Below, one piece after another: positions 1 through 32,555 of a stretch of 45,874 nt of DNA. A model generated the notes under the pieces. That model was not told the origin of the DNA. It saw only the letters and a list, made by a program, of their open reading frames with translations, and did no database searches. The DNA comes from Acholeplasmataceae bacterium. Its GTDB lineage: Bacteria > Bacillota_I > Bacilli_A > ML615J-28 > CAG-313. Each line of letters starts with the position of its first letter. Position 1 is the first letter of the stretch. The position numbers and the translations under genes were made by a program. The stretch spans positions 1 to 45,874 of the forward strand of contig DUPC01000048.1 of assembly GCA_012838545.1 (NCBI GenBank), in the 5' to 3' direction.

Positions 1-37
1 AGCTTTATAACACTCAAATTTCACAGCATCCTAAAAC
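1..37 (-). CRISPR. First (leader-proximal) CRISPR repeat of a type II-A array, cut by the window edge
   Basis: Read on the minus strand from 37, the sequence starts GTTTTAGGATG, a typical type II repeat 5' end, and continues through the core CTGTGAAATTTGAGTGTTAT (26-7) to AAAGC. A 36-nt repeat would span 37-2. The core is perfectly complementary to the anti-repeat of the tracrRNA at 2336-2317. It lies just downstream of csn2 and directly after a TTTTGAG leader end. The spacers lie outside the window, so repeat length and the exact 3' end cannot be confirmed from a second copy. Confidence 0.85.
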
Positions 38-130
38 CTCAAAATCCGGTTGCTGTGCCTTGTTTAGCGTCCCAAACAGGCTCTTTTAGTGTTATATATT
101 GATTATATCATAATCAATTTGTAATTTCAA
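38..130 (-). promoter_or_regulatory. CRISPR leader with array promoter
   Basis: On the minus strand a near-consensus promoter is visible: TTGAAA (130-125), a 17-nt spacer and TATAAT (107-102). The -35 lies inside the 3' end of csn2. Transcription would start near 95, about 58 nt before the first repeat. The leader ends in TTTTGAG (44-38), close to the ATTTGAG leader-anchoring sequence known for Streptococcus thermophilus type II-A arrays, which guides spacer integration. A stem-loop, GCCTGTTT/AAACAAGGC with one bulged A, occupies 81-57. The -10 sits in an inverted repeat TTGATTAT/ATAATCAA. Confidence 0.75.
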
Positions 131-1007
131 TGCTTTTAATATACTCGCGATATGGCTCAGCTATTTCTAATAAATTACCTTTAAACATTAATTTCCTATC
201 AATGTGCATAACTTTATTGAATAAAACCCCTGCTATATACATTTCTATATCGTAAATTTCTGTTAATTTGTTTGCGTGAAAAACACCAATGTACCTGTCT
301 ACTATTTCATTAATCTTTTGCCTTTCCAAATCAATTGGCCAGTTTAGTTTTATATGGTTATAAACAACATGAAAATCAAAATTTAGAACCTGTTCATCAA
401 TAAAAACATTATAACCACTTTTGGCATACATATTAAAGATAATAATACTGTCCATATCATCTAAAACAGTGCCAATAATATTTTCATTCGTTAATACTAT
501 CATTGTTTTATTTTTGTTTTTTTCTATGAAAGATTGGAGTAAAACCTTGATTACTTTTAGATATTCTCGAGAATCAATTTTATTCTCAAACTCTCCAAAT
601 TGTGTTGCTAATTTGACCACATCAATATCAAATGTCAAATTATAATTAATAACTGAATTACTGACGGTTTCGCTAAAAATTCTGTCAAGAAATTGATTTA
701 TTTGATCATTTGCCTCATCAAGTTTATCCTCAATTTCCTTAATTACATAATCATAAATAAGTGATCCTTTTTTTAAACTTGTTTGAAGAAACAAACTTTC
801 ATAATCAAGCAAATTTAATACATATGCTTTTTTGGAATCAATTTTTTTATTACCTATTTCAATTGAATTGTTAGGGTTGTTAATATCAAAGAAAACCGAA
901 AGAAAGTTTTGTAGGACATGGTAATTCTCAACAATTATATTATTCTTTTTTTCGAGAAATAAGGAATCAACTTTTACTTTATCTGAAATAATATTCAACT
1001 CAATCAA
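114..1007 (-). CDS. csn2: Csn2, type II-A CRISPR adaptation protein (long variant)
   Basis: Csn2 forms rings that bind double-stranded DNA ends and helps Cas1-Cas2 and Cas9 acquire spacers. The protein is about 297 aa, longer than the classical ~220-aa Csn2 and closer to the long form found with S. thermophilus CRISPR1. Assignment rests on position (last cas gene, between cas2 and the leader), length and the mixed helical, acidic sequence; I see no diagnostic catalytic motif, as expected for this non-enzymatic family. The frame is open from a GTG at 1016, but that codon overlaps the Shine-Dalgarno GGAGG (1020-1016). A TTG at 1007-1005, eight bases downstream, is the better start. It overlaps the end of cas2 by 8 nt, implying translational coupling. 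Confidence 0.75.
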   Translation of the reverse strand: MIELNIISDKVKVDSLFLEKKNNIIVENYHVLQNFLSVFFDINNPNNSIEIGNKKIDSKKAYVLNLLDYESLFLQTSLKKGSLIYDYVIKEIEDKLDEANDQINQFLDRIFSETVSNSVINYNLTFDIDVVKLATQFGEFENKIDSREYLKVIKVLLQSFIEKNKNKTMIVLTNENIIGTVLDDMDSIIIFNMYAKSGYNVFIDEQVLNFDFHVVYNHIKLNWPIDLERQKINEIVDRYIGVFHANKLTEIYDIEMYIAGVLFNKVMHIDRKLMFKGNLLEIAEPYREYIKSIEITN

Positions 1008-1347
1008 GGGCGTCACCTCCGAAAAAAACTATTTCTTTAGAACCAACTATCATGTCATGACGGTTCTTTTCGCCACTTAAATAAATCATATCGTTATATT
1101 GCTTTTCTGTAAGCTTTAGAATGATTATATTTCCTCTTTTTGGCAATATATTAATAACTTTAACGCCAACCTTATCAAAATCAGAAGCATTTGTTAGTGA
1201 TTTAACATAGACAGAATATTGAAGCATATAAAACCCAATCTTTTTTAACTGCCTTACAAAAATACGATAACTCCTCAAATCATCTTCCTCTGTAACCGGC
1301 AAATCAAACAACAAAATCATTCTCATCTTTCGATAATCACTTTTCAT
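1000..1347 (-). CDS. cas2: CRISPR-associated endonuclease Cas2
   Basis: Cas2 dimerises and bridges two Cas1 dimers in the spacer-integration complex. The protein (115 aa) has the ferredoxin-fold signature start RMILLFDLP near residue 9 with the conserved Asp, then the YRIFVRQL helix, the QYSVYVKS strand and GNIIILKLTEKQY, all typical of type II Cas2. The ATG at 1347 is chosen because MKSDYRKMRMILLFDLP aligns with the usual N-terminus of type II Cas2; an upstream TTG at 1353 would add two residues. It overlaps the 3' end of cas1 by 11 nt and csn2 by 8 nt, so cas1-cas2-csn2 are one tight operon. Confidence 0.95.
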   Translation of the reverse strand: MKSDYRKMRMILLFDLPVTEEDDLRSYRIFVRQLKKIGFYMLQYSVYVKSLTNASDFDKVGVKVINILPKRGNIIILKLTEKQYNDMIYLSGEKNRHDMIVGSKEIVFFGGDALD

Positions 1348-2239
1348 AAACAAATAAGGGAAATTGAAGTGTATCCAGTTTTTGACTGGTTAAAGCATCT
1401 GTAACTGAACGAACAAATATTTTAATTGCTTCTGATATCTTTTGCTTGGTACCTCTTATCTCAACTTTTTCAAGCAAAATACCAACCAATTTTTCTTTAA
1501 AAATTGGTGACATAAACTTAACATCCTCCTTTTGCAAAAGTTTCATAACATAATGATCGCATATTGGTCTAAATACTTCTATCAAGTCATCTGCAAACCC
1601 AAAATAATTATATTCGCTGATATGAAAAATACCTAAACTCGGAATATATCCATGCCCAACAATTACTTGAGCAATCTTTGATCTGACAATTTGATAAATG
1701 TAATTTAACGATGAGTTTATGATTCCTTCGTCTCTTCTTTCTCGCGAAAAACCTTCACCAAACAATTCGCGAAAATATACTTTTGCAGCCAAACCCTCAC
1801 GATTGGTTGGATCTCCGTCTTCAACTTCCATTAAATATTGCGTTAACAACGGAAGTTTATTTGTTCTACCCCACTTTTGAAGGACTGCACTCTGTAAAGC
1901 TATCTTATTCTTTACAATTTCTTTCCAAACTGTTTTTTTGATTGCAATTGACCATTCCAATTGGCATTTATTATATTTTGAACTACGGCTATGATTTTGA
2001 AAAGGTAAAAATAAACCTACTGGCATGTGGTTATTTGAACATATAATCACGCTAATTCCTTTTTCCACTAACTCTTGTAAAAGCTTTATTGATGTATTAC
2101 AACGAGAATCGGTAATAATAACAGTATCTATTTCATCAAGATTAATCCAAATCGTTTCATCTTTATAAACTATACCAATATTATTAAGACGGTAATTTAT
2201 TCGACTTGCTTCATCAATACAAACATATCTCCAACCCAT
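1337..2239 (-). CDS. cas1: CRISPR-associated integrase Cas1
   Basis: Cas1 is the metal-dependent integrase that inserts new spacers at the leader end of the array. The protein is 300 aa, normal for type II Cas1. Visible family features are the N-terminal beta-rich domain and the catalytic helical domain with the metal-binding Glu in AAKVYFRELFG, the His of PSLGIFH, and the acidic ADDLIEVFRP segment. The start is the ATG at 2239 (MGWRYVCID), preceded by TTTGGAGGAAAT. A longer open frame running to 2296 reads through the tracrRNA terminator and is not coding. The gene follows the tracrRNA terminator by only 16 nt, so its transcript probably comes from read-through or from the tracrRNA promoter. 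Confidence 0.96.
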   Translation of the reverse strand: MGWRYVCIDEASRINYRLNNIGIVYKDETIWINLDEIDTVIITDSRCNTSIKLLQELVEKGISVIICSNNHMPVGLFLPFQNHSRSSKYNKCQLEWSIAIKKTVWKEIVKNKIALQSAVLQKWGRTNKLPLLTQYLMEVEDGDPTNREGLAAKVYFRELFGEGFSRERRDEGIINSSLNYIYQIVRSKIAQVIVGHGYIPSLGIFHISEYNYFGFADDLIEVFRPICDHYVMKLLQKEDVKFMSPIFKEKLVGILLEKVEIRGTKQKISEAIKIFVRSVTDALTSQKLDTLQFPLFVYEK

Positions 2240-2255
2240 ATTTCCTCCAAAGAAC

Positions 2256-2354
2256 AAAAAAAGAGAGGATTTGACTCCTCTCCCTGGGTTCCACATTCGT
2301 GTTATAATAGGAACGACTGTGAAATTTGAGTGTTATACGCTACGTCTAGCGCAC
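2256..2354 (-). ncRNA. tracrRNA for the type II-A Cas9
   Basis: The cas9-cas1 gap encodes an RNA on the minus strand. It begins near 2354-2352, a proper distance below TATAAT at 2364-2359. The anti-repeat (2336-2317) is perfectly complementary to 20 nt of the CRISPR repeat; further TCCTA and UAAC segments can pair with the repeat's TAGGA and GTT, leaving a tracr-side bulge as in known repeat:anti-repeat duplexes. Short stems such as TGG-AAC-CCA could form a nexus. The 3' end is a strong terminator hairpin, GAGAGGA/TCCTCTC (2282-2263), followed by seven Ts (2262-2256). Predicted length is about 99 nt. Placement between cas9 and cas1 resembles S. thermophilus CRISPR1. Confidence 0.88.
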
Positions 2355-2358
2355 TTTT

Positions 2359-2387
2359 ATTATACTATATGATGTCATTCGAGTCAA
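2359..2387 (-). promoter_or_regulatory. SigA-type promoter of the tracrRNA, inside the 3' end of cas9
   Basis: TTGACT (2387-2382), exactly 17 nt, then TATAAT (2364-2359) on the minus strand. The -35 lies in the last codons of cas9 and the -10 overlaps its stop codon at 2367-2365. Expected transcription start is at about 2354-2352, just upstream of the anti-repeat. Confidence 0.85.
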
Positions 2388-5300
2388 GTATTTTGTACTT
2401 TTTTCCCAAAATATTAAAACCATAAATTATTATACGTTTATCATTGGGTGACATATATAATGGCGCAGAACTTGAATATTCTCCATCTTTTCCAAAGGTA
2501 AGTAAATTATTGGTTTTATGATACCCAATATATCGGCCTTCAGCGGTTTGATTATTTTTCTTAGTTATCTCGCACCAACTACCGTTGTATAAGGTTGCAA
2601 TATATTTTGGTTTTTTATTTCCAATCAACCTTTCATAAGTTTCCTTAAAATAATGTTCATCCCGGTTAATTTTCTTAGAGTTTACATCTACACTGACCAT
2701 GAAAATAGGTAAAAAGATAAATTTCTGCGTTTCATAATTATAATAGATTTCTGTGCAATATTGGCTTAATTGATCCAAACCATAGATTGTTTTTTCCTTA
2801 ACTTTGGGTGTAACAAATTCTCCTAATTCATTTTTCTTTCGGTTTGGGTAATCCTTCTTAATAATGTAAGGGCTAGTTCTTTTTTCTAGATAACGTAATC
2901 TTTTTACTATTGGGCTTTTTGGGTTTTTGGGTGATTTTTTTATTCCGTGAATTAAATAATTAAACGAATTTGGAGTTGATTCAATTCCGTGTTCAAATAA
3001 ACAATATTCCAAAAAAGGGTTTTTATTAGCTTTTAAATTAGAGAAAAAGATTTCTTTCAATCGTTTGAATAATTTTGGATCCTCAAGTTCACATAACAAA
3101 ATCATTTTTTTGTCATTTTCGTCAAATAATTTAATAAAGTTATCATTTTTCTTTTCTTCATAAATGTTGTTGATTTGTTGGACTTTATAGTAATCGTTTC
3201 CTAACCAAACTAACTTAATTGGATTTTGGTTAGATATTTGTTGGTTGATGCTTTTACGCACTTCAAAGGAACGTTTAATATTGGATTCATTTATTTTTCT
3301 AATATTTTCAATATTTTTTAACGTTATTTTCGGCAGCATTCCACCAAGTTCAATTCTTTTTTCTTTATTTTCAAACCAGAATTTCGCATCATTTTGACCT
3401 TTAATTAACAATTCCCCAAATGGGGTATTTGCTATACTGGCAACAATTGTTGCATCTATTGCATGATGATACAATTGAGTACGATCTTTTTCTTCTAATT
3501 CATGTTTTTTCCTAATCCTTGAAGTCAATTGACCAGGAATTGTTACCAAGTTAATGTAACGATTTGCTCTCCTCTCCAAAAAAACATTAAATTTTCTTAA
3601 TTCTTCAACTAAAGCCATCGAACCATAAGCAGTATCCCGTAAATTGCGATTAATGAACTTCAACTCATACTTTGAAATATCTCCTTCAAAAAGCAAATTG
3701 CTTTTTTTCTTGTCGGAGATTGGTAATTCAATGACTCGCTCTTTAAACGGTTCGTATGAATTAATACTTGTTAAAAATTCGTATGGTGTCTTTTTTGATT
3801 TTTCTTTATTACATTTTAAACAAGCAACTGTAAGATTATCAAAGGAATCATCGTAAGATTGAGAAATAGGAAGGATATGTTCGATTTCAAGAGTAGTTAA
3901 TTGGGATGCTTGAATTGGATTGTTACAATACATACAGTGGCCATTTGTTTCCTTATAACACATGGTTTTGAGAATATTAGCTTCATTTACCTTAATATCA
4001 TTTTCCTCTAAAAAAGTTATTGCGTCTTTTCGTAATTTCTCAAGTTTCGCCTGTTCTTTTACAATAGCATCCTTTTTTGCTTTGCTATTCATTTCTCTTG
4101 TGGATTCAATAGCAATTATTGTCGGGTATTCCTTATACCTTTTTATAATTGCATTAATAACGCTTATGGCTTTTCTGAGAGTTTTTTTAACTTGAGGATT
4201 TGCGATTAAATCATCAATGTATTTCTTTTCAATAAAATATGGAGCAACTGTTCGGTTGGTATAGTTTGCTTCAAAGAACTCCTTGGCTTCTTTCTCGTAA
4301 TCTAATTTCTTCATTAGTTGCATGTAATTTAATTGGTACTGTGTTTTTTTCATATCAGATAAAGCTCTTTTCAGCACTTTTACGCTTAATGAATGATACA
4401 GCGATGTATTGTTTGTGAGCTTCTTTGTTTTGATTTCTTTAAGTACCTTAATCTCCTCTGGGGAGAACGAGTATTCAGAAACTCTTTCACTTAGCATCTC
4501 TTCAATTTGCACACTAGAAGGGACTACTGTTAAAACATACATTGTTTTATTGTAAATGACTTTTTCCTTGTCAAATAACCAAATTGGGTTCAAACCATTT
4601 TGAGCAAATTGCTTTCTTACATATTTGTAAAAGTTATATAATGAAACTTCCGGTTTTTTATTTTTATCAATGCGATAGCCTTCAATATTATCAATACCAA
4701 TTCCTAGGATTTGTTTAAACATCTTATCAAGCCGAATTGTTTCATTACTTAAAACATAATCTCTAATTTCTAATATCGTTTCTTCTATGAATTTTCCTTT
4801 TTCGTCAACTTTATATGAATATATTTGAGGAAGTAAAGAGACTTCTTTTACCCTCATATTAATAAAATCGTTAAAGAAATTAAACTCTTCTGCAAAATAA
4901 TTTATCCTTGGCGCACAAGTTTCGCCTAAAGCTATCTTGCATTTTGCTATTAGTTTTTCATATAAATACTTGAATTTGTTTGGATTAACTTTATATTGTT
5001 CCAAATCGGCAACTGTTCTAAAGAGGCCGTAAGGAGTCAATTGATTAATTCTTGCTCCTCCAGGACCTTCATAAAATTTCCGTTTACTTGTAATAATCTC
5101 GATAATTTTATCCGTTAATTCGATTGTAAACTTTGGGTGATATTTTCTTTGAGTTTCCAAAAGCTTTTTAATCTCGCGAATATTATCCGAACATTTTATT
5201 AACTTTTCGGAGTTTCGGTATTTTCCATTTTTTTTATATTCGCTAAAAATATATTCACATGGAAATTGACCATCCTCTAAATTAACCACTTCCCTATCCA

Positions 5301-5658
5301 ATTTCTCATCATCAAATGGAATATACCCGCGATGAACTGCAAAATAATAAATAATATTAATAATATCCTGAACAAAAATTTCTTCTTTTAGTCCTTTTGT
5401 TCTTTTAAGTAATAGTTCAGGCTCAATGGTTCTTTGAGTTGGAATCCCATTCTCCTTAAATAGCAATGCTAATCTTTCAACACGATGCAATCGGCGATTA
5501 CGTAATCTTCGGGCTGCTCGAAGTCTACGGCGCTCTTGCGCATCACTACTCTCTTGATAGCGCACTACACCATAATCCTCAATTTCATTTGTTTCCTGGT
5601 TAATAATGGACCATCCCACATTATTTATACCAAGATCTAATCCAATAATATACTTCAT
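2365..5658 (-). CDS. cas9: CRISPR-associated endonuclease Cas9 (compact, type II-A)
   Basis: RNA-guided double-strand DNA nuclease of 1097 aa, in the small-Cas9 size class (S. aureus Cas9 is 1053 aa). The RuvC-I motif IIGLDLGINNVGWS carries the catalytic Asp at residue 8. An arginine-rich bridge helix (RRRLRAARRLRNRRL) follows. RuvC-II is TIIAIESTRE with Glu near 517, HNH is LEIEHILPISQSYDDSFDNL with His near 593, and RuvC-III is YHHAIDAT with Asp near 735, so both nuclease sites look intact. The HNH is flanked by CMYC and CLKC, a likely zinc site. The C-terminal ~300 residues should be wedge and PAM-interacting. The ATG at 5658, preceded by a G-rich SD and matching the RuvC-I start, is preferred over an upstream ATG at 5691. 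PAM is unknown. Confidence 0.98.
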   Translation of the reverse strand: MKYIIGLDLGINNVGWSIINQETNEIEDYGVVRYQESSDAQERRRLRAARRLRNRRLHRVERLALLFKENGIPTQRTIEPELLLKRTKGLKEEIFVQDIINIIYYFAVHRGYIPFDDEKLDREVVNLEDGQFPCEYIFSEYKKNGKYRNSEKLIKCSDNIREIKKLLETQRKYHPKFTIELTDKIIEIITSKRKFYEGPGGARINQLTPYGLFRTVADLEQYKVNPNKFKYLYEKLIAKCKIALGETCAPRINYFAEEFNFFNDFINMRVKEVSLLPQIYSYKVDEKGKFIEETILEIRDYVLSNETIRLDKMFKQILGIGIDNIEGYRIDKNKKPEVSLYNFYKYVRKQFAQNGLNPIWLFDKEKVIYNKTMYVLTVVPSSVQIEEMLSERVSEYSFSPEEIKVLKEIKTKKLTNNTSLYHSLSVKVLKRALSDMKKTQYQLNYMQLMKKLDYEKEAKEFFEANYTNRTVAPYFIEKKYIDDLIANPQVKKTLRKAISVINAIIKRYKEYPTIIAIESTREMNSKAKKDAIVKEQAKLEKLRKDAITFLEENDIKVNEANILKTMCYKETNGHCMYCNNPIQASQLTTLEIEHILPISQSYDDSFDNLTVACLKCNKEKSKKTPYEFLTSINSYEPFKERVIELPISDKKKSNLLFEGDISKYELKFINRNLRDTAYGSMALVEELRKFNVFLERRANRYINLVTIPGQLTSRIRKKHELEEKDRTQLYHHAIDATIVASIANTPFGELLIKGQNDAKFWFENKEKRIELGGMLPKITLKNIENIRKINESNIKRSFEVRKSINQQISNQNPIKLVWLGNDYYKVQQINNIYEEKKNDNFIKLFDENDKKMILLCELEDPKLFKRLKEIFFSNLKANKNPFLEYCLFEHGIESTPNSFNYLIHGIKKSPKNPKSPIVKRLRYLEKRTSPYIIKKDYPNRKKNELGEFVTPKVKEKTIYGLDQLSQYCTEIYYNYETQKFIFLPIFMVSVDVNSKKINRDEHYFKETYERLIGNKKPKYIATLYNGSWCEITKKNNQTAEGRYIGYHKTNNLLTFGKDGEYSSSAPLYMSPNDKRIIIYGFNILGKKYKILDSNDII

Positions 5659-5682
5659 TTTACCCCCCCTAGTATTTTTTTC

Positions 5683-5711
5683 ATTATACAATTATTTCCA
5701 AAATATGTCCA
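5683..5711 (-). promoter_or_regulatory. SigA-type promoter of cas9
   Basis: TGGACA (5711-5706), a 17-nt spacer and TATAAT (5688-5683) on the minus strand, about 25 nt upstream of the cas9 start codon. One mismatch to the -35 consensus. It overlaps the upstream alternative ATG at 5691, which supports the downstream start at 5658. Confidence 0.7.
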
Positions 5712-5720
5712 TTTTTATAT

Positions 5721-5757
5721 AAAAAAACTAAAAAATTTGTTTGAAAATTTTTTAGTT
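5721..5757 (-). terminator. AU-only hairpin with T tract upstream of cas9
   Basis: A perfect 13-bp inverted repeat, AACTAAAAAATTT/AAATTTTTTAGTT (5757-5745 and 5738-5726), with loop TCAAAC on the minus strand, followed by a T run to 5721. It would insulate the cas9 promoter from transcripts arriving from upstream. The stem contains only two G-C pairs, so termination strength is uncertain. Confidence 0.5.
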
Positions 5758-6046
5758 CCATTTGTTTTTTAAACACCAAAAAGCAAAAATGATTCTATCA
5801 CTAACACAATCGCAAAAATAACGCTATATCAAAGTTTTTCGGTCGATCTAATCGAGATTTTTATGATACTGCTGCAATACTGCAACCGTTAAAAATCTTT
5901 TTACAGAGCACCTCAGTGAGTACAATAATTTTTATTGTTGCCTTAATTATTCTTTAATTATTTTTAGCTTTTTGACAGATTTATAAAAATGTTTAAATTT
6001 TATAAATTAAGCTATAAGATAAAAGGGGCAACAAAAATCAAACCCT
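5758..6046. other. AT-rich intergenic stretch without a recognisable gene
   Basis: No open frame of credible length or composition occurs on either strand. It holds several dyads: TCGAT/ATCGA near 5843-5855, AGATTTTT/AAAAATCT near 5855-5902 followed by Ts on the plus strand, and CAATAA/TTATTG near 5930-5944. I could not match these to a known RNA family. The CRISPR repeat core is absent here, so it is not a second tracrRNA. Confidence 0.4.
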
Positions 6047-6310
6047 AAATTAAAAGAATAACCAAAAGCCCAAAAGCGATTAAGCATAAAATGAATAATA
6101 CTTTTGTTGAAACTTAGGCTCCTTGTCCTAGTGCTCTAGCCCTTTGGGGATATTCTTTTTTCCAAACCAACCAAAGAACAAGGAAACCTAAAATGGTATA
6201 TTTAATGTTTGACGAATCCCCTACTTTTGTTTCTTTTTAAACATTTTTGTTATTTAAAAAACCATCGCAGTTTGTGCAACCCGCAGCTTGGTCGCTAACT
6301 CGACTTTCAC
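6047..6310 (-). pseudogene. Possible decayed small membrane-protein gene downstream of trmFO
   Basis: On the minus strand an AGGAG eight bases before a GTG (6310) starts an 18-codon frame that stops at 6254. One frame over, after a stop, codons to 6114 read a hydrophobic stretch (YTILGFLVLWLVWKK) and a basic tail. After a further TAA the same frame continues with a second hydrophobic stretch (VLFILCLIAFGLLVILLI) to a stop at 6047. Neither hydrophobic piece has its own plausible start. The pattern fits an old two- or three-helix membrane protein broken by a frameshift and stops. I do not recognise the family, and chance hydrophobic reading of T-rich DNA remains possible. Confidence 0.35.
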
Positions 6311-6326: not shown

Positions 6327-7637
6327 TTAAATTTTTTCTTTATCTATTATTTCCTTAAGCGTTTCTAAGGCTCTTTGGCCATAAGCTATTTTACGAAATT
6401 TTTTCGGCATTTTTTCGTTTAACGGACTAAACAAACCAAAGTTTACATTCATCGGTTCAAATTTCTTAATAGCAGAGGTAGTGACATAAAGCGATAAAGA
6501 GCCGATAGCGCAATTTGAACTTAAACTCATAAAGGGTCTGCCTTCCAACATCCGAGCCATATTGATTCCTGCCACAAGGCCGCTGGAAGCAGATTCCACA
6601 TAGCCTTCCACGCCGGTCATCTGCCCCGCAAAAAACACTTTGTGATTATTTTTATATTGAAACCCTGGGTTTAATAGTTTCGGCGAATTGATATAGGTAT
6701 TGAGATGCATTACTCCGTACCGCACAATTTCCGCTTTTTCCAAACCCGGGATAAGGGAAATCAGTTTCTTTTGATCCGGGAATTTCAAATGGGTTTGAAA
6801 ACCGACAATATTGTATAAACTGCCAATCGCATTATCTTTTCGGAGTTGTACCACCGCAAACGCCCGTTTTCCGGTTTTTGGATCAATTAAACCAACCGGT
6901 TTCATCGGACCAAACAATAAAGTATCTTTGCCTCGTTTGGCCATTTCTTCAATCGGCATACAGGCTTCAAACACTTTGATTTCAAAGTCTTTGGTTTCCA
7001 CGGTGGAAGCGGAAAGCAAAAATTCATAAAAACGAGTAAATTCTTCTTCGCTCATGGGGGCGTTGAGGTAGGCAGCTTCGCCTTTATTGTAACGGGAAGC
7101 TTCAAAAACGATGGCGCGATCGATTGATTCCGCTGTTACAATCGGCGCCGTCGCATCAAAAAAGAACAAATCTTCTTCACCCAGCATTAGCGAGATTTCT
7201 TTGCTTAAGGCATCGCTGGTTAGGGGTCCTGTTGCTATAATGACATACTCTTTGGGGATACGCGTTACTTCTTCGTTGACGATTTCGATATTGGGGTGGT
7301 TTCTTAAAGTTTCGGTAATGTAGGAAGCAAACTTTTCTCTATCCACTGCTAAAGCTCCGCCCGCTTCCACTCTCGTGGCATCGGCTGCTTTCATGATTAA
7401 GGAATCTAGCAGGCGCATCTCTTCCTTCAACACCCCAACCGCATTCTCCAGGGAACTCGCTCTAAGGGAGTTGCTGCAGACGAGTTCGGAAAAAAGTCCC
7501 GTTTGGTGGGCGGGAGTCATTTTTTTCGGACGCATTTCATATAGTTTTACTTTAAATCCCCGCTTAGCCAGTTGATAACTTGCTTCGCTCCCTGCCAGCC
7601 CCGCACCGATAACGGTTACTATTTCTTTATTTTCCAT
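6327..7637 (-). CDS. trmFO: TrmFO (Gid), folate/FAD-dependent tRNA m5U54 methyltransferase
   Basis: TrmFO makes 5-methyluridine at position 54 of the tRNA T-loop using methylenetetrahydrofolate and reduced FAD. The 436-aa protein has the N-terminal FAD-binding motif [12 protein letters not shown] (residues about 9-20), the YEMRP segment, ELVCSNSLR with the family's conserved cysteine, and [12 protein letters not shown] and [12 protein letters not shown] further on. Length and motifs match Bacillus TrmFO. The start is the ATG at 7637; an upstream in-frame TTG at 7643 would add two residues and neither has a strong SD. It stands alone, ahead of the intergenic region that separates it from cas9. 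Confidence 0.96.
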
Positions 7638-7726
7638 AAACAAATCACTTACTTTCTAATCATCGAGTATTTATGTATATTATATCATATTTTCCTTGAA
7701 ACCATTGTCTATTATACGCCAAAGAA

Positions 7727-7750
7727 AAAAAAGGCCCAAAAGCCTTTTTT
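7727..7750 (-). terminator. Rho-independent terminator after the three-LysM gene
   Basis: AAAAAAGGC (7727-7735) and GCCTTTTTT (7742-7750) flank a six-base loop. On the minus strand the GC core is followed by a run of eight Ts, 18 nt below the stop of the LysM gene. The A and T flanks make it potentially bidirectional. Confidence 0.8.
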
Positions 7751-7767
7751 GGCGGTTTCCCCCTTGA

Positions 7768-8247
7768 TTAAGTGATACGAATCGTTGCGCCTTTTTTCAA
7801 CCAGTTGCTGGCATTTAATTCCAACAACTCCTGGGCGGTTTTGCCGGTTTGATTAATAATTCTGCTAACCGTATCTCCTTCCACAATTTGGTAAGTACTG
7901 CCGCGGCGCGGGATTTTGACGACTTGGTTTTTCTCTAACTTCAATGCACCAAAATCATTATATGTTCCGAGCAGCGCCGGAGTAGTGCCGGTCTTTTGAG
8001 CAATTCCCACAATCGTATCTCCTTCTACAGTTCGATAATCCTCAAAAACGGTGAATTGTTGCATCCCGGCTTTTGGTATTAATAAGACTTGCCCAGGATA
8101 AATCGTGGAACTCGTCAACATATTGGCATCGCTGATATCGGCTACGGTCGTATTGAACAATTTGGCAATTTGATACAATGAGTCGCCTTGTTTTACAACA
8201 TACTCATCATACCCATTCATGAAGCGTTTGGTTTGATGTCTATTCAT
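7768..8247 (-). CDS. Three-LysM-domain protein, probably spore-coat or cortex associated
   Basis: The 159-aa protein is almost wholly three LysM modules, which bind peptidoglycan or chitin-like glycans. Module 1 (about residues 15-58) is YVVKQGDSLYQIAKLFN ending YPGQVLLIP; module 2 (about 64-108) is a divergent TVEGDTIVGIAQKTG; module 3 (about 113-159) is YQIVEGDTVSRIINQTG ending IRIT. There is no signal peptide or membrane segment, which argues against secretion and suits spore proteins made in the mother cell. A strong SD (AAGGAAGGGG) precedes the ATG. Upstream, CATATAAT reads as either a SigA -10 or a SigE/K-like -10. The spore role is inference from the lack of a signal peptide and the sporulation genes elsewhere. 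Confidence 0.75.
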   Translation of the reverse strand: MNRHQTKRFMNGYDEYVVKQGDSLYQIAKLFNTTVADISDANMLTSSTIYPGQVLLIPKAGMQQFTVFEDYRTVEGDTIVGIAQKTGTTPALLGTYNDFGALKLEKNQVVKIPRRGSTYQIVEGDTVSRIINQTGKTAQELLELNASNWLKKGATIRIT

Positions 8248-8308
8248 ATGCCCCTTCCTTTCAAACCCATTATATGATTAACCGCCCTTAAGGGTATAGG
8301 CATATGCA

Positions 8309-8360
8309 AAAAAGACTATATTTTCACCTTTTTTAAGCTTTAGGGAAAAATAGTCTTTTT
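8309..8360 (-). terminator. Terminator after thrS
   Basis: AAAAAGACTAT (8309-8319) pairs with ATAGTCTTTTT (8350-8360) around a long loop that holds a further weak stem. On the minus strand the stem is followed by six Ts. It lies about 100 nt past the thrS stop and is the only hairpin there. Confidence 0.65.
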
Positions 8361-8459
8361 GTTTCGATTGATTATCTTTTTGACAAAATAAACTAGGGCA
8401 GTTCCAAAATAAACGTTTCACTTCTAAAACAATGAATGCCTTAACGTGAAAATAACCGA

Positions 8460-10373
8460 TTATTCTTTGCTTTTCCCGAAGGTTTTTACCTCATTTGTTA
8501 GTTTTGCGATGAATTCCTCGATTTGAAGGGTCTGCGATTCATTCGTTCCATAAGGGCGATAAGTAATTAATTCTTCGTTTTTCTCTTTATCGCCTACCAC
8601 AATCGTATACGGAATTTTCTTTGTTTGCGCTTCTCTAATCTTATAATTCATCTTTTCGTCCCGCAAATCGACTTCAACTCTAAATCCTTGCTCAGCCAAA
8701 ATTTCCTTTAGTTTATTGGCATAATCGCCGTGGGAAGCGTTATTTACCGGTACAACAACAATTTGTCTAGGTGAAAGCCATAGCGGGAATGCCCCTGCAT
8801 AATGCTCTATCAAGATACCGATAAAGCGCTCAAGCGAACCAAAGAGCGCACGGTGCAACATGATTGGCCGAACCTTTTCGCCTTGATCGTTGATATAATG
8901 GAGGTCAAAACGTTCCGGCAAATTCATATCTAACTGAATCGTGCCACATTGCCAAATCCGCCCCATCGAGTCGCGAAGTTTAAAGTCAAGTTTTGGGCCG
9001 TAGAAAGCCCCGTCACCCGGGTTAACCTTGAACGCATGTCCCGCTTTGGTGCAGGCATCCGATAGCGCTTCTTCGGCTTTGTTCCAAACTTCAATCGAAC
9101 CGATGTATTTTTCTTCCGGACGCGTAGATAGTTCTATATTGTAACTTAAGTTGAAAATGTCGTATACATAGTCAAATAAATCGATTAAACGCGCGACTTC
9201 GTCAACGATTTGATCAAATCGCAAATAGATATGCGCATCGTCCTGGGTAAAGTTTCGCACTCTAAAGAGACCCGTTAAAGCACCGCTTGCTTCATGGCGA
9301 TGAACTAACCCCAGTTCTCCCACGCGAAGCGGAAAATCTTTATAGGAATGAATATCGCGTTTATACACCAAGATTCCCCCTGGGCAGTTCATCGGTTTAA
9401 TCGCAAATTCCCGGTCATCAATTTCGGAAACATACATGTTTTCGCGGTAATTATACCAATGTCCCGAAATTTCCCACAGGCTCTTGTCAAGCATAATTGG
9501 CGTTTGAATCAATTGATAACCAGCTTTGGTATGAATTTTATACCAAAACTCTTCCAAATTCCGCCGTAAAATCATGCCATTCGGTAGCCAGAACGGGAAT
9601 CCCGGACCATATTCGCTCATCATAAATAAATCAAGTTCTTTTCCGAGTTTGCGATGGTCACGTTTTTTACGTTCTTCCACCAATTGTAAATACGCCACAA
9701 GTTCTTCTTTCGTAAAGAAAGCAATTCCGTAGATTCGTTGCAGTTGTTCGCGTTTACTGTCACCCCTAAAATATGCGCCGCTTACATTTAATAATTTAAA
9801 ATGACGGAGCCATTTTGTGGAAGGCAAGTGCGGACCGCGACATAAATCCGTAAACGACCCTTGTGAATAAGTTGTTATAACCTCGTCTTCCGGTAAATCG
9901 TTGATTAATTCAATCTTGTATTTGTCGTTTTTAAAGTAATCCAAGGCTTCACCCCGCAAAAGTTCTTTACGAACAATCGGAATGTTTTGTTCGGCCAACT
10001 TCAACATTTTGCGTTCGATTTCCTTAAAATCTTCTTCGCTGATTTTGACGTCGCCTAAATCCATGTCGTAATAAAAACCTTCTTCAATGGTTGGTCCAAC
10101 GCCAAAAAGTGCCTGAGGATACATTTCTTTAATCGCATGAGCCAATAAATGCGCACAAGAATGATTCAACAAATTAAACAATTCTTTTGTGTCGGTTACA
10201 ATTTCCAAATGAGCATCATGATTGATTGGTCGATGCAAATCATAGAGTTCGCCGTCTACTTTGGCTGCGATAGCATTTTTGGCTAAACTTACCGAAATAG
10301 ACTGAGCTATTTCATAAGCACTTGCGCTTTGCGCAAATTCTTTACTGTTCCCGTCTGGAAAAATAATTTTCAT
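8460..10373 (-). CDS. thrS: Threonyl-tRNA synthetase
   Basis: Class II synthetase that charges tRNA-Thr. The 637-aa protein has the N-terminal TGS domain (about 1-60), the editing/SAD domain with NHSCAHLLAHAI and the HxxxC-type pair near FTDLCRGPHL (about 70-230), the catalytic core with motif 2 (FRVRNFTQDDAHIY), the zinc-ligand cysteine in KPMNCPGG, motif 3 near PIMLHRALFGSLERFIGIL, and a C-terminal anticodon-binding domain. An SD AGGAGG lies six bases before the ATG. The gene is preceded by a T-box leader and its own promoter, so it responds to uncharged tRNA-Thr. It follows dnaB-dnaI as in Bacillus. Confidence 0.98.
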   Translation of the reverse strand: MKIIFPDGNSKEFAQSASAYEIAQSISVSLAKNAIAAKVDGELYDLHRPINHDAHLEIVTDTKELFNLLNHSCAHLLAHAIKEMYPQALFGVGPTIEEGFYYDMDLGDVKISEEDFKEIERKMLKLAEQNIPIVRKELLRGEALDYFKNDKYKIELINDLPEDEVITTYSQGSFTDLCRGPHLPSTKWLRHFKLLNVSGAYFRGDSKREQLQRIYGIAFFTKEELVAYLQLVEERKKRDHRKLGKELDLFMMSEYGPGFPFWLPNGMILRRNLEEFWYKIHTKAGYQLIQTPIMLDKSLWEISGHWYNYRENMYVSEIDDREFAIKPMNCPGGILVYKRDIHSYKDFPLRVGELGLVHRHEASGALTGLFRVRNFTQDDAHIYLRFDQIVDEVARLIDLFDYVYDIFNLSYNIELSTRPEEKYIGSIEVWNKAEEALSDACTKAGHAFKVNPGDGAFYGPKLDFKLRDSMGRIWQCGTIQLDMNLPERFDLHYINDQGEKVRPIMLHRALFGSLERFIGILIEHYAGAFPLWLSPRQIVVVPVNNASHGDYANKLKEILAEQGFRVEVDLRDEKMNYKIREAQTKKIPYTIVVGDKEKNEELITYRPYGTNESQTLQIEEFIAKLTNEVKTFGKSKE

Positions 10374-10389
10374 GATTTTCCTCCTATCG

Positions 10390-10660
10390 TTAAATAAAAA
10401 AACTCATCCTTAGGATAAGGACGAGCGTTGTTCGTGGTACCACCTTAATTCGCAAAAATACGCTAAAATTTAACAAAGGACATGTTAATTCACGGGTATT
10501 TTTGCCTCAAAAAGCATAACGGGCTTAATCCGGCTCAATTTCGATTGAGCTGCTCCTGGGTGGTAATAAAAGGGCTTTTTTGGTAGCTTGCACCATACCT
10601 ACCTCGCTGGAAAAAAGGAATCCTCTTATCTTGTCCCATTCGTCGCAGTTTTTGATATTT
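10390..10660 (-). promoter_or_regulatory. T-box riboswitch controlling thrS (threonine specific)
   Basis: On the minus strand the T-box sequence AAGGTGGTACCACG sits at 10446-10433. It is followed by the terminator CTCGTCCTTA/TAAGGATGAG (10425-10403) with seven Ts (10402-10396). Upstream lie an AGCGAG/GGTAG stem I apical region and a Thr codon ACC followed by A at 10564-10562, a good specifier candidate, then a hairpin TCAAT/ATTGA. Uncharged tRNA-Thr would stabilise the antiterminator and let thrS be transcribed. An open frame of 90 codons on this strand overlaps the leader and is not considered coding. Confidence 0.9.
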
Positions 10661-10730: not shown

Positions 10731-10777
10731 GAGTACCAAAACAACCTATTTTTGCCAATTCAAAGGCTTTTAGGTTT

Positions 10778-11683
10778 CTAGCGGTAATTTTGGTCATTCA
10801 GGGGGGTAAAATCCATTAAAGTTCTCATTCTCTCTACGATTCTTTCGGCTTTGACGATGTCGGAATTTTTTCCGGTATCGCGCAAGTGTTCCGTTAAAAG
10901 ATCTTTGCTTAAATTGGAAGTTACAAACATCGGTTTTCTTTGCAACATCCTTTCTTGCAAAATCGGACTTAAAACTTCATCACGAATGTATGCAGAGGAC
11001 ATTTCTCCGCCCAAATCATCCAAAATTAAGATATCCGCTTCTTTTAGTTGGTTAATCATATCGTCAAACATCTCGCTGTCGCGCCCGATAGTGCTTTTGA
11101 TTAGCCTTACAAATTCGGGATAATAAACAAATAGAACGTTTGCCCCAAGTTCGGTCAATTGGTGGGCTAAATGCAACATCAGGTATGATTTTCCACAACC
11201 ATAAGGGCCATAAAGATAAATGCCTTTTTGAGGGTTGGGATAGTTTTCGATGAATCTATTTATTAGGGATAGTATCACTCTTCTTTTGGGGTTCAAATAA
11301 ATGTCTTCCGGATTGTACCCCGCCAGAGCGGGACCGATAAATTCCAAGCGTTCCAAGCGGGTAAGCTGATCGTTGACTTGCTGTTGGTACTTACAATCTC
11401 TAGTATTTAAGACCAAATAACCTTCATCATTGTCGAGGAATGGTTCTTTTCCTTTGATTGGTTGACCACAACTGTTTAAACCCGGACAATTTTGACATAT
11501 TTCATGGCGATATTGAAAAGCCATAAAAAGCGATAAATTGTTTTGGATATCTTCTTTGGTTAACTTAGTGGCTTTTACAAAACGAGATACTTCGGGGTTC
11601 TTTAATACCCCGTTTACTTTTTGATGAAGAGTTAATTGATCATTTGGCATAACTGAATCATTGTTTTCTTTTGCTTTATTCAT
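10778..11683 (-). CDS. dnaI: DnaI, primosomal helicase loader (AAA+ ATPase)
   Basis: DnaI loads the replicative helicase onto DNA at the origin and at restarting forks. The protein (about 301 aa) has an N-terminal helicase-binding domain with a zinc-binding cysteine cluster (CQNCPGLNSCG, about 60-70), then a AAA+ domain with Walker A GPYGCGKSY (about 165), Walker B ILILDDLGGE, and a sensor region FVTSNLS. The ATG at 11683 is seven bases after GAGG; the ATG at 11689 is too close to the SD. It follows dnaB by 14 nt and precedes thrS, as in B. subtilis. Confidence 0.95.
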   Translation of the reverse strand: MNKAKENNDSVMPNDQLTLHQKVNGVLKNPEVSRFVKATKLTKEDIQNNLSLFMAFQYRHEICQNCPGLNSCGQPIKGKEPFLDNDEGYLVLNTRDCKYQQQVNDQLTRLERLEFIGPALAGYNPEDIYLNPKRRVILSLINRFIENYPNPQKGIYLYGPYGCGKSYLMLHLAHQLTELGANVLFVYYPEFVRLIKSTIGRDSEMFDDMINQLKEADILILDDLGGEMSSAYIRDEVLSPILQERMLQRKPMFVTSNLSKDLLTEHLRDTGKNSDIVKAERIVERMRTLMDFTPLNDQNYR

Positions 11684-11697
11684 AAACATACCTCGTT

Positions 11698-13011
11698 TTA
11701 CTTTGCCTTTTTCTTGGGTTTAAAAATTTTCTCCAGTTCTTCCATGGAAAGCATATTTTCCTCGGATTCCCGTTTTTGGCGTTCTTCTTCTTCGCGTTTC
11801 TTTGCTTCCTCCATATGTTTATCAAACCAATCTGGAACTGGTTTTTCCTTTCGGGAAGGTTTTTGAGAAAGCGGAGATGAATTAATATATTTTAACGCAT
11901 CTTCGGTGGTTTTGATGCCTTTTCGAATCCAAGTATTAAGAATTTTCAAGAAATAATTGTACCCAGGGATTTCTCCGCCTTTTTGTTCCAAAACATAAAT
12001 CATCAAAACATTGATAATCCCGACGCTGACGCCGGTTTTTCTTTGCAACTGCTCGAAAATTTGGATTTCGTTTGGTAACAGTTCCGTTCCTGTTTTGCTT
12101 TCAAAAATCTTGGCGGGAGAAATAGTTTCCAATTGTTGAATCAGCTTGGAACTAGGTTTTGAGGGAACCTTCGCAATCTTTTTCACGGTAACAGCTTGCT
12201 TTTTATTGCCATATACCGCTTTAACCGCTTCAGGAAGTTTTTCGTAATCGATTTTATAATCGGAGGTTGTGGCCAATAAAATTGCCTCTACCATTTCTTC
12301 TGCTGTCAAACAATAGAAAAAGCAATACCGATTGACTTCGGTTTTTAACCTTTGGTCAAGAATTACTTCCGGAGCCCATTTTCCCAGCGCATCCAATTGC
12401 ACTTGGACAATCTCAAATTGACATTGGGCGTTTTTGACTCTTACCCCTTTGTTTATTCCGTCAACCCACCAAGCGGAAAAATCAATTGGGGATAAATCAT
12501 TGGTTACGATAAACACTTCATCAAAAGCTTTGGAGACATTTTGATATTTACTGATATCAAAATTACGGACCAATAATTCCGCCATTATTTTTTCATAGGC
12601 TTCGTCACCAATTTTGGTTCTTAAAATATGAGATAGGTTGACATCATTGGCAAAAGCATATGGGTTCATAACTCTTTTCAATAAATAGACGTAACGATTA
12701 GGTTCACCAATTTTGGTTTCATAATAATAAGTTTCCAATAAGCCCAAGGCTTCCAAAGTTACCCGGTCATCCAAAAACTTTTCCGGTTTTTTGATTTGGG
12801 TAATATTGAAAAAAGCCGAATGACTCATCAATTCCGATTCGGTTTCCCCCGGCTTTACCAAACTGTAAAAAGTGGTATATAAGGCTTGGGCTTGAGGACC
12901 CAAAAGCGGTGCATAAAGAAAGGTTAAAATTTTTTGTTCATAGGGTGTAATAATATCGGGAATAACCACCACAAAATGATCCGCAAGAAGATATTCTTCT
13001 TTTTTCTTCAT
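11698..13011 (-). CDS. dnaB: DnaB (Firmicutes helicase-loading and membrane attachment protein)
   Basis: In Firmicutes DnaB acts with DnaD and DnaI to load the replicative helicase and links the origin to the membrane. The 437-aa protein has an N-terminal winged-helix-like region (about 1-110), a central region and a C-terminal DnaB_2/DnaD-like domain (ELLPNEIQIFEQ to YFLKILNTWIRKGIKT, about 315-385). A charged Lys/Glu-rich tail ends it. The ATG overlaps the stop of the preceding gene by 4 nt (ATGA), so the two are coupled; an AAAGGA lies eight bases upstream. It is the loader DnaB, not the hexameric helicase (no Walker motif). Confidence 0.9.
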   Translation of the reverse strand: MKKKEEYLLADHFVVVIPDIITPYEQKILTFLYAPLLGPQAQALYTTFYSLVKPGETESELMSHSAFFNITQIKKPEKFLDDRVTLEALGLLETYYYETKIGEPNRYVYLLKRVMNPYAFANDVNLSHILRTKIGDEAYEKIMAELLVRNFDISKYQNVSKAFDEVFIVTNDLSPIDFSAWWVDGINKGVRVKNAQCQFEIVQVQLDALGKWAPEVILDQRLKTEVNRYCFFYCLTAEEMVEAILLATTSDYKIDYEKLPEAVKAVYGNKKQAVTVKKIAKVPSKPSSKLIQQLETISPAKIFESKTGTELLPNEIQIFEQLQRKTGVSVGIINVLMIYVLEQKGGEIPGYNYFLKILNTWIRKGIKTTEDALKYINSSPLSQKPSRKEKPVPDWFDKHMEEAKKREEEERQKRESEENMLSMEELEKIFKPKKKAK

Positions 13012-13373
13012 CTAGTTAATCCTTTCCCTTTAAAATTAAGTTTGCGATCGCAGCGCGTGTAAAAATCCTCAACAATTTTTAAAGCTTTTTTCTTGGTTAA
13101 GGACCAATAAGTGTAAACAGTCATATCTAAAGCTGTTTCATAGTAAGTGATGTTGACCAAGGTGACTATAATATGACTTTTGGCGCCTTGCAAGAAAATT
13201 TCTTTATAGCGGTCGTCGATTGTTTCTACATTATAATTCATTTGTTTGGCAACTTCCAAAACACAATTTTTCACCGTATTGTAATCATTACGATAATAAT
13301 GGGTTAATAGTTCCGGGTTGGCGGTATCCGAGGTTGCCACGCTTTTCACTAAAAATTCACCGCTCAAAGTCAC
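13008..13373 (-). CDS. Protein of unknown function between coaE and dnaB
   Basis: The 121-aa soluble, mixed alpha/beta protein has no signal peptide, membrane segment, zinc ribbon or nucleotide-binding motif that I can see. In B. subtilis the nrdR gene lies near this slot, but this protein lacks NrdR's CxxC zinc finger and ATP-cone, so it is not NrdR. Its GTG start (13373) directly follows the TGA of the mutM-coaE gene with AAGGAG four bases before, and its own stop overlaps the dnaB start, so it is an integral part of this replication operon. I do not recognise the family. Confidence 0.75.
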   Translation of the reverse strand: MTLSGEFLVKSVATSDTANPELLTHYYRNDYNTVKNCVLEVAKQMNYNVETIDDRYKEIFLQGAKSHIIVTLVNITYYETALDMTVYTYWSLTKKKALKIVEDFYTRCDRKLNFKGKGLTR

Positions 13374-14783
13374 TCATCTCCTTATCTTTTGTAATATTTT
13401 ATTTAATTGTTGGGCTGTATCGACAATCGATCCAGCATTATCTATCACATAGTCCGCTTTTGCCGCTTTTTCTGGAAGGGGCATTTGGACTATGATTTTT
13501 TTCATTGCATATTGTTCATCGATCCCGTCGCGCGCCATCAAGCGTTTGACATTGATGTCTAAAGGAACCGAAACCACGATTACTTCGTCAAAAGACTTTT
13601 CCCGATTGGTTTCGTACAATAACGGAATATCGACAAAAACAAATTTTTCTTTTTGTTGTTCTTTAATCCATTCATCCAGCGCTTCATATACAAATGGATG
13701 AATGATGGCTTCCAAGTCTTTGCGAGCTTGAGGATCGGTAAAAATGATTTTGCCCAAACCCTTACGGTTAATAATTCCGTCAACGCAAACTTCCGGGAAA
13801 CGCCTAGCCACTTCTTCGATAACCGCGGGTTTTTGATATAAAAGGTCCACTTCTTCGTCAGCTGCCCATACTTGTAAGCCCGCTTCCCGCAAAAGTTGCA
13901 CAATGGTACTTTTCCCGGTGGCAATCCCGCCGGTAATCGCAACTACTTTTGGTTTTAAAATTTGACAATTCGGGCAAATATATGTTCCGCGGCCACTAAC
14001 CTTTAACTTAATGATTTCGGTGCTGCACACCGAACATTCTTCTCCAGCTTTTCCGTGCACGTGCAAAAACTGTTGAAAGCGTCCGGTTACGCCCAGACTG
14101 CTGGTATAAGAACGAATGGTTGTTCCCCCGTAAAAAATTGCCTCATCCAATACTTTTTTGGCATAAAAACTGAGTTTGTTAGCTTCTTCTTTGGATATCG
14201 ACGAAGCTAATCGCAGCGGATGGACTTTCGCCAAATAGCACACTTCATTAACATAGATATTGCCGAGACCCGCGATGATGCTTTGATCCAACAAAACCGC
14301 TTTAATGGGAGCTTTTTTGTCATGAATTAGCTTATACAATTCGTCTTCTTCCCAATTCTCATTGGCATCTTTTCCGAGTTTTCCCAGCATGGGGTAAGCA
14401 GAAATGGCTTCGAATTCGTTGGTTGAAAGATAAGTAAACGTTCCGAATTTTCTAACATCGTGATAGTGGAGGGATTTTTCGCTTTCAAAGTCTATTATTA
14501 TATGCACATGTTTTTCAACCTGGGCATCTTTGGGCAAAATATAAAATTTGCCTTCCATGCGTAAATGAACAATCAAACTTCCTTTCGATAAAAGGAAGAT
14601 AAGGTATTTTCCCATCCGTCTAAACCCTTTAATGACTTGGTGGGGCAATTCCTGTTCCAATGTTGCAACGGTTGTGTCGTGTAAAATCCCCGGATATAAT
14701 ACTCTTACGCCGCTTATTGTTTCGTTAGTTATATTGTCTTGCAATATGTTGATAACGGTTTGAACTTCAGGAAGTTCAGGCAT
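13374..14783 (-). CDS. mutM-coaE: Fused MutM (formamidopyrimidine-DNA glycosylase) and CoaE (dephospho-CoA kinase)
   Basis: One uninterrupted 469-aa frame joins two enzymes normally encoded separately. Residues 1 to ~275 are MutM: the catalytic N-terminus PELPEVQTV (Pro2 nucleophile), the GLGNIYVNEV helix-turn-helix and the zinc finger CSVC...CPNC, which ends at CPNCQ. About four residues later CoaE begins with the P-loop AITGGIATGKST, continuing through the CoaE lid and VDIPLLYE to the end. MutM removes 8-oxoguanine; CoaE makes coenzyme A from dephospho-CoA. No ATG, GTG or TTG and no SD occurs at the junction, so CoaE cannot easily be made alone. The same two genes are adjacent in B. subtilis, so the fusion probably arose by stop-codon loss. 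A sequencing error removing a stop is possible but would have to be a precise one. Confidence 0.93.
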   Translation of the reverse strand: MPELPEVQTVINILQDNITNETISGVRVLYPGILHDTTVATLEQELPHQVIKGFRRMGKYLIFLLSKGSLIVHLRMEGKFYILPKDAQVEKHVHIIIDFESEKSLHYHDVRKFGTFTYLSTNEFEAISAYPMLGKLGKDANENWEEDELYKLIHDKKAPIKAVLLDQSIIAGLGNIYVNEVCYLAKVHPLRLASSISKEEANKLSFYAKKVLDEAIFYGGTTIRSYTSSLGVTGRFQQFLHVHGKAGEECSVCSTEIIKLKVSGRGTYICPNCQILKPKVVAITGGIATGKSTIVQLLREAGLQVWAADEEVDLLYQKPAVIEEVARRFPEVCVDGIINRKGLGKIIFTDPQARKDLEAIIHPFVYEALDEWIKEQQKEKFVFVDIPLLYETNREKSFDEVIVVSVPLDINVKRLMARDGIDEQYAMKKIIVQMPLPEKAAKADYVIDNAGSIVDTAQQLNKILQKIRR

Positions 14784-14784
14784 A

Positions 14785-15306: not shown

Positions 15307-15332
15307 TATCTTCACCTCTTAATTCTTTTCCC

Positions 15333-32545: not shown

Positions 32546-32555
32546 CACCTCAATT

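What the first reader, a model, noticed from the sequence alone, without database searches (positions are those of the whole stretch)
1..5711. Complete type II-A CRISPR-Cas effector and adaptation set with a compact Cas9, its tracrRNA, leader and first repeat
Seen: cas9 (1097 aa with all RuvC and HNH catalytic residues), tracrRNA, cas1, cas2, long csn2, leader and repeat, all on one strand and apparently intact. Known: a long Csn2 and a tracrRNA between cas9 and cas1 are features of the S. thermophilus CRISPR1-like branch of type II-A, and compact Cas9s often have distinct PAMs. Inference: this is a working system and may represent a little-studied Cas9 lineage in a spore-former.
Basis: partly seen in the sequence, partly recalled or inferred. 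Interest (0 to 1): 0.85.

Follow-up and report, generated by a model that had tools for sequence, protein, structure and literature searches.

The report
Deep-branching compact type II-A CRISPR-Cas9 locus
This is a complete-looking bacterial CRISPR immune locus whose small Cas9 belongs to a separate, so far uncharacterised lineage, and whose helper RNA starts with a hairpin cap that also occurs, with different sequences, in many related systems.

Summary
Minus strand: cas9 (1097 aa), tracrRNA, cas1, cas2, a 300-aa csn2, leader and first repeat; all genes are open and the Cas9 catalytic residues are present. The window begins at a contig end inside the array. The distal array end (repeat, 30-nt spacer, terminal repeat) is on contig C34; trmFO-xerC synteny in relatives ties the two contigs together.

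The interpretation needs one correction. Csn2 is the long S. thermophilus CRISPR1 (Stu0660) kind and the gene order fits, but Cas9 is outside the St1Cas9/SaCas9 clade. With three relatives from the same GTDB family (50-55% identity) and one IMG/VR contig (41%) it forms a 100/100 clade, 25-30% identical to other compact Bacilli Cas9s. Its HNH keeps two CxxC pairs that all 19 St1/Sa-type Cas9s lack. Its last ~200 residues match no solved structure and no Pfam model above cut-off, so the PAM is unknown.

The predicted tracrRNA begins with a hairpin abutting the crRNA duplex. Hairpins of different sequence occupy this position in 14 of 21 compact II-A loci (combined p about 1e-12); my limited literature search found no description of it.

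Verdict: a probably functional new II-A variant, not a new type. Expression, cleavage and PAM are untested.

The parts
5683..5711 (-). promoter-like site of the cas operon (TGGACA-17-TATAAT)
   Evidence: 11 of 12 consensus positions, one of the three best in 7.7 kb
2365..5658 (-). cas9, 1097 aa, RuvC + zinc-type HNH (CxxC...CxxC), divergent C-terminal domain
   Evidence: structure model mean pLDDT 79 matches SaCas9/St1Cas9 structures
2359..2387 (-). tracrRNA promoter inside the 3' end of cas9 (TTGACT-17-TATAAT)
   Evidence: same -35/-10 arrangement at cas9 3' end in L011 and L012 (12 of 12)
2335..2354 (-). 5' hairpin of the tracrRNA (GUGCGCUA-GACG-UAGCGUAU)
   Evidence: stem varies with pairing kept among the family relatives
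2308..2337 (-). tracrRNA anti-repeat: upper part 2337-2317, internal loop, lower stem UCCUA 2312-2308
   Evidence: 21 exact complementary bases; RNAcofold duplex
2292..2301 (-). nexus-like hairpin CAC-GAAU-GUG
   Evidence: CAC-GUAU-GUG in L011
2254..2285 (-). tracrRNA intrinsic terminator
1337..2239 (-). cas1 (type II), 300 aa from ATG 2239
1000..1347 (-). cas2 (ORF opens at TTG 1353; ATG at 1347)
114..1016 (-). csn2, long form, 300 aa, GTG start
   Evidence: no direct family hit
102..130 (-). promoter of the CRISPR array (TTGAAA-17-TATAAT, extended TG), overlapping the csn2 end
38..113 (-). leader ending TTTTGAG at the repeat
   Evidence: Group 1 leader end is ATTTGAG in PMC5382924
57..81 (-). 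leader hairpin with apex GGGACGCT (GACG tetraloop)
   Evidence: the same apex on a different stem in relatives G005/G001
2..37 (-). first CRISPR repeat GTTTTAGGATGCTGTGAAATTTGAGTGTTATAAAGC; the contig ends one base into spacer 1
   Evidence: the array's distal end lies on contig C34 (L009:1-102)

Best explanation
It is a chromosomal type II-A CRISPR-Cas locus of a deep-branching compact Cas9 lineage, inserted between trmFO and xerC. Shown: gene content, catalytic residues, promoters by consensus, repeat:anti-repeat pairing, terminator, array ends, phylogenetic place. Inferred: Cas1-Cas2-Csn2, with Cas9, insert 30-bp spacers at the TTTTGAG|GTTTTAG junction. Pre-crRNA and a tracrRNA of about 100 nt are transcribed from their own promoters and pair, and host RNase III trims the duplex. 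Cas9 then cuts targets with HNH and RuvC at an unknown PAM read by a divergent C-terminal domain. The 5' hairpin of the tracrRNA ends where the crRNA duplex begins; most likely it caps the primary transcript (5'-end stability, or lengthening the helix offered to RNase III) and is cut off during maturation.
For: Intact genes and catalytic residues. Csn2 by fold and profile. Repeat:anti-repeat duplex with 5' hairpin, nexus and terminator. Three near-consensus promoters exactly in front of cas9, tracrRNA and array. A relative (G005) with the same gene order has 26 repeats and 25 different spacers. Cas9 clade of window, L010, L011, L012, L021 at 100/100, outside the St1/Sa clade (100/100 split; 93/95 with II-C added); Cas1 tree agrees. 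trmFO is followed by xerC in 13 relatives, while here trmFO and xerC sit at the outer sides of the locus on C22 and C34.
Against: The middle of the array is missing from the assembly; only one spacer of this genome was read. No protospacer in a phage was found, so no PAM. No expression data. The relationship among the St1/Sa clade, II-C and this clade is unresolved and joined by long branches. The Csn2 model has modest confidence (pLDDT 67, TM 0.36 to 3zth). Start sites and the RNA fold are predictions.
Confidence: 0.87

Rival explanations
1. An ordinary member of the S. thermophilus CRISPR1 / SaCas9 branch, merely diverged.
For: Long Csn2 closest to Stu0660; same gene order and tracrRNA place as most compact loci sampled; best solved-structure sequence hit is St1Cas9, 231 bits; leader end close to ATTTGAG.
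Against: All 19 other compact Cas9s of the class form one clade without it (93/95 with outgroups); real St1/Sa-type proteins score 440-680 bits to SaCas9/St1Cas9; the paired CxxC motifs of its HNH are absent in all 19.
Confidence: 0.1
2. A decayed or silent locus that only looks complete.
For: Only the array ends are seen; a relative (G002) carries what reads as a whole-locus deletion scar, and G005 carries a spacer matching its own dnaA, which suggests that activity can be lost or blocked in this family.
Against: All four ORFs, the tracrRNA, promoters and first repeat are intact here; the distal repeat differs by one base only.
Confidence: 0.08
3. On the 5' hairpin alone: it is not an RNA module but a DNA operator overlapping the tracrRNA start site.
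For: The core CTAGACGTAG is a near-palindrome, identical in the four relatives, next to the -10 box.
Against: In other lineages the sequence differs entirely while the hairpin is kept; the window's stem holds a G-U pair where the relatives have G-C, which pairs in RNA but not in DNA.
Confidence: 0.2

Closest known systems
S. thermophilus CRISPR1 type II-A system (St1Cas9, Csn2b/Stu0660)
   Same: Gene order, tracrRNA between cas9 and cas1, long Csn2, 36-nt repeat with GTTTT start, leader end close to ATTTGAG, Cas9 size about 1100 aa
   Different: Cas9 outside the St1/Sa clade (24% identity to 6m0w in the structural match); zinc-type HNH; unrelated C-terminal domain by sequence; different nexus (CAC-GAAU-GUG) and a short 5-bp lower stem
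S. aureus SaCas9
   Same: Overall fold (best Foldseek hit, E 1e-53, TM 0.61-0.66) and size
   Different: 24% identity; the SaCas9-type HNH domains sampled here lack the two CxxC pairs; different guide RNA
Compact type II-C Cas9s (GeoCas9, NmeCas9, ThermoCas9)
   Same: Size and general fold; a zinc-binding HNH is reported for the II-C AnaCas9 (from memory, a lead only)
   Different: This locus has csn2 and a II-A leader and array arrangement
Long-form tracrRNA (tracr-L) of S. pyogenes
   Same: A longer 5' end upstream of the anti-repeat
   Different: tracr-L has a separate promoter and acts as a single guide that represses Pcas (PMC11417352); here the short 5' part is a hairpin

Membership tests
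Type II CRISPR-Cas | Cas9 with RuvC and HNH, plus tracrRNA and repeat array | tested here: met
Subtype II-A | csn2 in the operon with cas1 and cas2 | tested here: met
   fold match to 3zth and to S. pyogenes Csn2; profile
Subtype II-A | array transcribed in the direction of the cas operon, downstream of csn2, with a GAG|GTTT leader-repeat junction | tested here: met
   junction TTTTGAG|GTTTTAG against ATTTGAG/GTTT
S. thermophilus CRISPR1 (Csn2b) branch | long Csn2 and tracrRNA between cas9 and cas1 | tested here: met
   300 aa, 3zth, tracrRNA position; Csn2b of about 350 aa in PMC3936727
S. thermophilus CRISPR1 (Csn2b) branch | Cas9 inside the St1Cas9/SaCas9 clade | tested here: not met
   100/100 split; 93/95
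Subtype II-C | no csn2 or cas4 (three-gene operon) | tested here: not met
   csn2 present
Cas9d (II-D) | short Cas9 (about 750 aa), model NF049971 | tested here: not met
   1097 aa; 123 bits against a cut-off of 375
Functional type II immunity | crRNA/tracrRNA expressed, target cleavage at a defined PAM | not testable with these tools
   protospacer searches gave no phage target

The most novel reading that the evidence does not exclude
A 5' hairpin that caps the crRNA:tracrRNA helix is a general, undescribed module of tracrRNAs in compact type II-A systems, kept as structure while its sequence turns over and absent where transcription starts directly at the anti-repeat. In this family a second hairpin with the same GACG loop sits in the leader of the array transcript.
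Probability: 0.45. Interest if true: 0.62.

Novelty: new variant of a known kind. Interest (0 to 1): 0.5.

Why it matters
A compact Cas9 (1097 aa, a size range of interest for delivery) of a lineage with no characterised member near it, an unfamiliar PAM-reading domain and its own guide scaffold would widen PAM choice and may be orthogonal to SaCas9 and St1Cas9. A II-A Cas9 with a zinc-type HNH bears on how II-A and II-C Cas9s are related. A recurrent 5' tracrRNA hairpin would be an overlooked step in guide RNA biogenesis that can be tested by deletion in a laboratory host.

Tried and rejected
PAM from spacers: 25 spacers of the relative G005 plus the one own spacer against 50,697 phage records gave no match; four 20-nt seeds against IMG/VR gave no match; hits in genomes of the order were the array itself, a perfect match in G005's own dnaA, a 93% match in a relative's dnaA (the same gene) and a 90% match in a chromosomal gene, so no PAM was called. 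Named relatives: the single genome-contig scan returned one weak HNH hit only; plasmid and phage collections hold only distant Cas9s, none covering 80% of the query. The genome's organism name could not be established. Repeat pattern in IMG/VR: three single copies with no second repeat near them, taken as chance. PF16595 (SpCas9 PI) search: uninformative, it rang in no control. C-terminal domain against PDB and Pfam: no significant match. G007's wider trmFO-xerC gap was read and shows no array. The core CTAGACGTAG in L032 lies inside the cas9 match and is taken as chance.

Full report
What is there. The first 5.7 kb of the window hold, on the minus strand, cas9, a tracrRNA, cas1, cas2, a 300-aa csn2, a leader and one CRISPR repeat. 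Cas9 is 1097 aa from the ATG at 5658. cas1 is better started at ATG 2239, because the upstream part of its ORF is the tracrRNA. The catalytic residues D8, E518, H594, N617, H731/H732 and D735 are conserved across the aligned Cas9s that cover them. The three best promoter-like sites in the first 7.7 kb lie exactly before cas9, the tracrRNA and the array; the number of such sites overall is no more than in shuffles, so it is their placement that counts.

The array and its place. The window starts at the end of contig C22, one base into spacer 1. Searching the assembly for the repeat found only two more copies, at C34:1-102, with one 30-nt spacer and a terminal repeat with one change. C34 continues with xerC, rpsB, tsf, pyrH and frr (names by my reading of the translations); C22 continues beyond cas9 with trmFO. 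In 13 relatives of the same family trmFO is followed by xerC, usually within about 150 bp. The locus is therefore an insertion between trmFO and xerC, and C22 and C34 flank the unassembled middle of one array. That join is an inference from synteny.

Csn2. The ORF matches no Pfam, NCBIfam or PADLOC model. An alignment with 19 csn2-position proteins gives a profile that hits only 3zth, the long Csn2 of S. thermophilus CRISPR1 (16 of the 20 members match PADLOC Csn2 models), and the predicted structure has 3zth as best match, E 6e-8. The model is of modest quality. The two family Csn2s against 17 others give only a weak profile match, so this is a divergent long Csn2.

Cas9 lineage. Relatives were found in three other genomes of the same GTDB family (L010 55%, L011 50%, L012 50%) and on one IMG/VR contig (L021, 41% over 610 aa). 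Searches of 395 genomes of the class and 392 of the phylum found nothing between these (about 2000 bits) and the ordinary compact Cas9s (337 bits or less). Trees put the five together at 100/100 and put all other compact Cas9s of the class in a separate clade (93/95 with II-C outgroups). The long branches warn against reading the order of the deep groups. The Cas1 tree agrees that window, L011 and L012 are apart. Three of the other compact Cas9s were tied to references by sequence: they score 440-680 bits to SaCas9/St1Cas9, while the window Cas9 scores 231. The fold is that of SaCas9/St1Cas9 at 23-24% identity. Two CxxC pairs in the HNH domain (C575/C578, C613/C616) are kept in the clade (L021 ends before the last Cys) and absent as pairs from all 19 others. 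The last 200 residues match no solved structure, and no Pfam model above cut-off.

tracrRNA. RNAcofold pairs the repeat with 19-21 bases of anti-repeat, then an internal loop, a 5-bp lower stem (UAGGA/UCCUA), a small nexus-like hairpin (CAC-GAAU-GUG) and the terminator. Between the inferred start site and the anti-repeat lies a hairpin, GUGCGCUA-GACG-UAGCGUAU; relatives have GCACUA-GACG-UAGUGC, so pairing is kept through changes. With the same rule applied to 20 compact loci with a tracrRNA in this place, and one family member added by hand, 14 of 21 have a hairpin that fills the 13-21 nt leader and abuts the anti-repeat. Six members of one clade and L067 start the tracrRNA about 6 nt before the anti-repeat and have none. 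Against random windows of the same loci the hairpins have p from 0.0003 to 0.027; one locus per clade, negatives included, gives a combined p near 7e-13. The sequences differ between lineages. Five literature searches on tracrRNA structure and processing found no description, but the library lacks many journals, including two papers on tracrRNA and type II families that I tried to open. Mechanism is inference: a cap on the primary transcript, either against 5' decay or to lengthen the helix given to RNase III.

Leader. It ends TTTTGAG|GTTTTAG, one base from the Group 1 motif ATTTGAG of PMC5382924, and that paper also links an early Group 1 branch to long Csn2. A hairpin with apex GGGACGCT is shared with G005/G001 on a different stem; only two independent leaders were available, so this is weak.

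Verdict. The locus is a new II-A variant of a known kind, probably functional. It works like the St CRISPR1 system but is not filed in that branch, because the Cas9 criterion was tested and not met.

Noticed in passing
L137 (G002:C23), about 2100-2520: Apparent scar of whole-locus loss: a cas9-like start (ATGAGTAAATATACAATAGGA, MSKYTIG) with an RBS is fused at TAGGA directly to a CRISPR repeat, spacer and last repeat; cas9 to most of the array are gone.
   Followed up: partly
L011 spacer 4 and L099:3124-3154 (G005:C14): A 31-nt spacer of relative G005 matches its own chromosomal dnaA perfectly (3' flank ATGTTGGATT): a self-targeting spacer in an essential gene.
   Followed up: partly
L011 (G005:C16) 10739-17300: A second type II system with its own 9-repeat array, cas1, cas2 and a large Cas9 (about 1370 aa) directly behind the compact one.
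   Followed up: partly
L021 (IMG/VR 3300006098_000197) 1-6156: A Cas9 of this lineage (41%) starts about 350 bp from divergent phage-type genes, including a tape measure protein; phage-borne, beside a prophage, or chimeric is not settled.
   Followed up: partly
window 13374-14783 (-): Formamidopyrimidine-DNA glycosylase (MutM) and dephospho-CoA kinase (CoaE) domains in one 469-aa reading frame.
   Followed up: partly
window 21446-21970 and 31472-32548 (-): CotE outer spore coat protein and germination protease genes in a 1.7-Mb genome support a spore-former with a small genome.
   Followed up: partly
window 10414-10652 (-): T-box leader upstream of the threonyl-tRNA synthetase gene.
   Followed up: no
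L066 (G200) about 6549-9867: Cas9 reading frame split in two (878 and 221 aa) beside an array of 47 repeats: a broken compact Cas9 or an assembly error.
   Followed up: no
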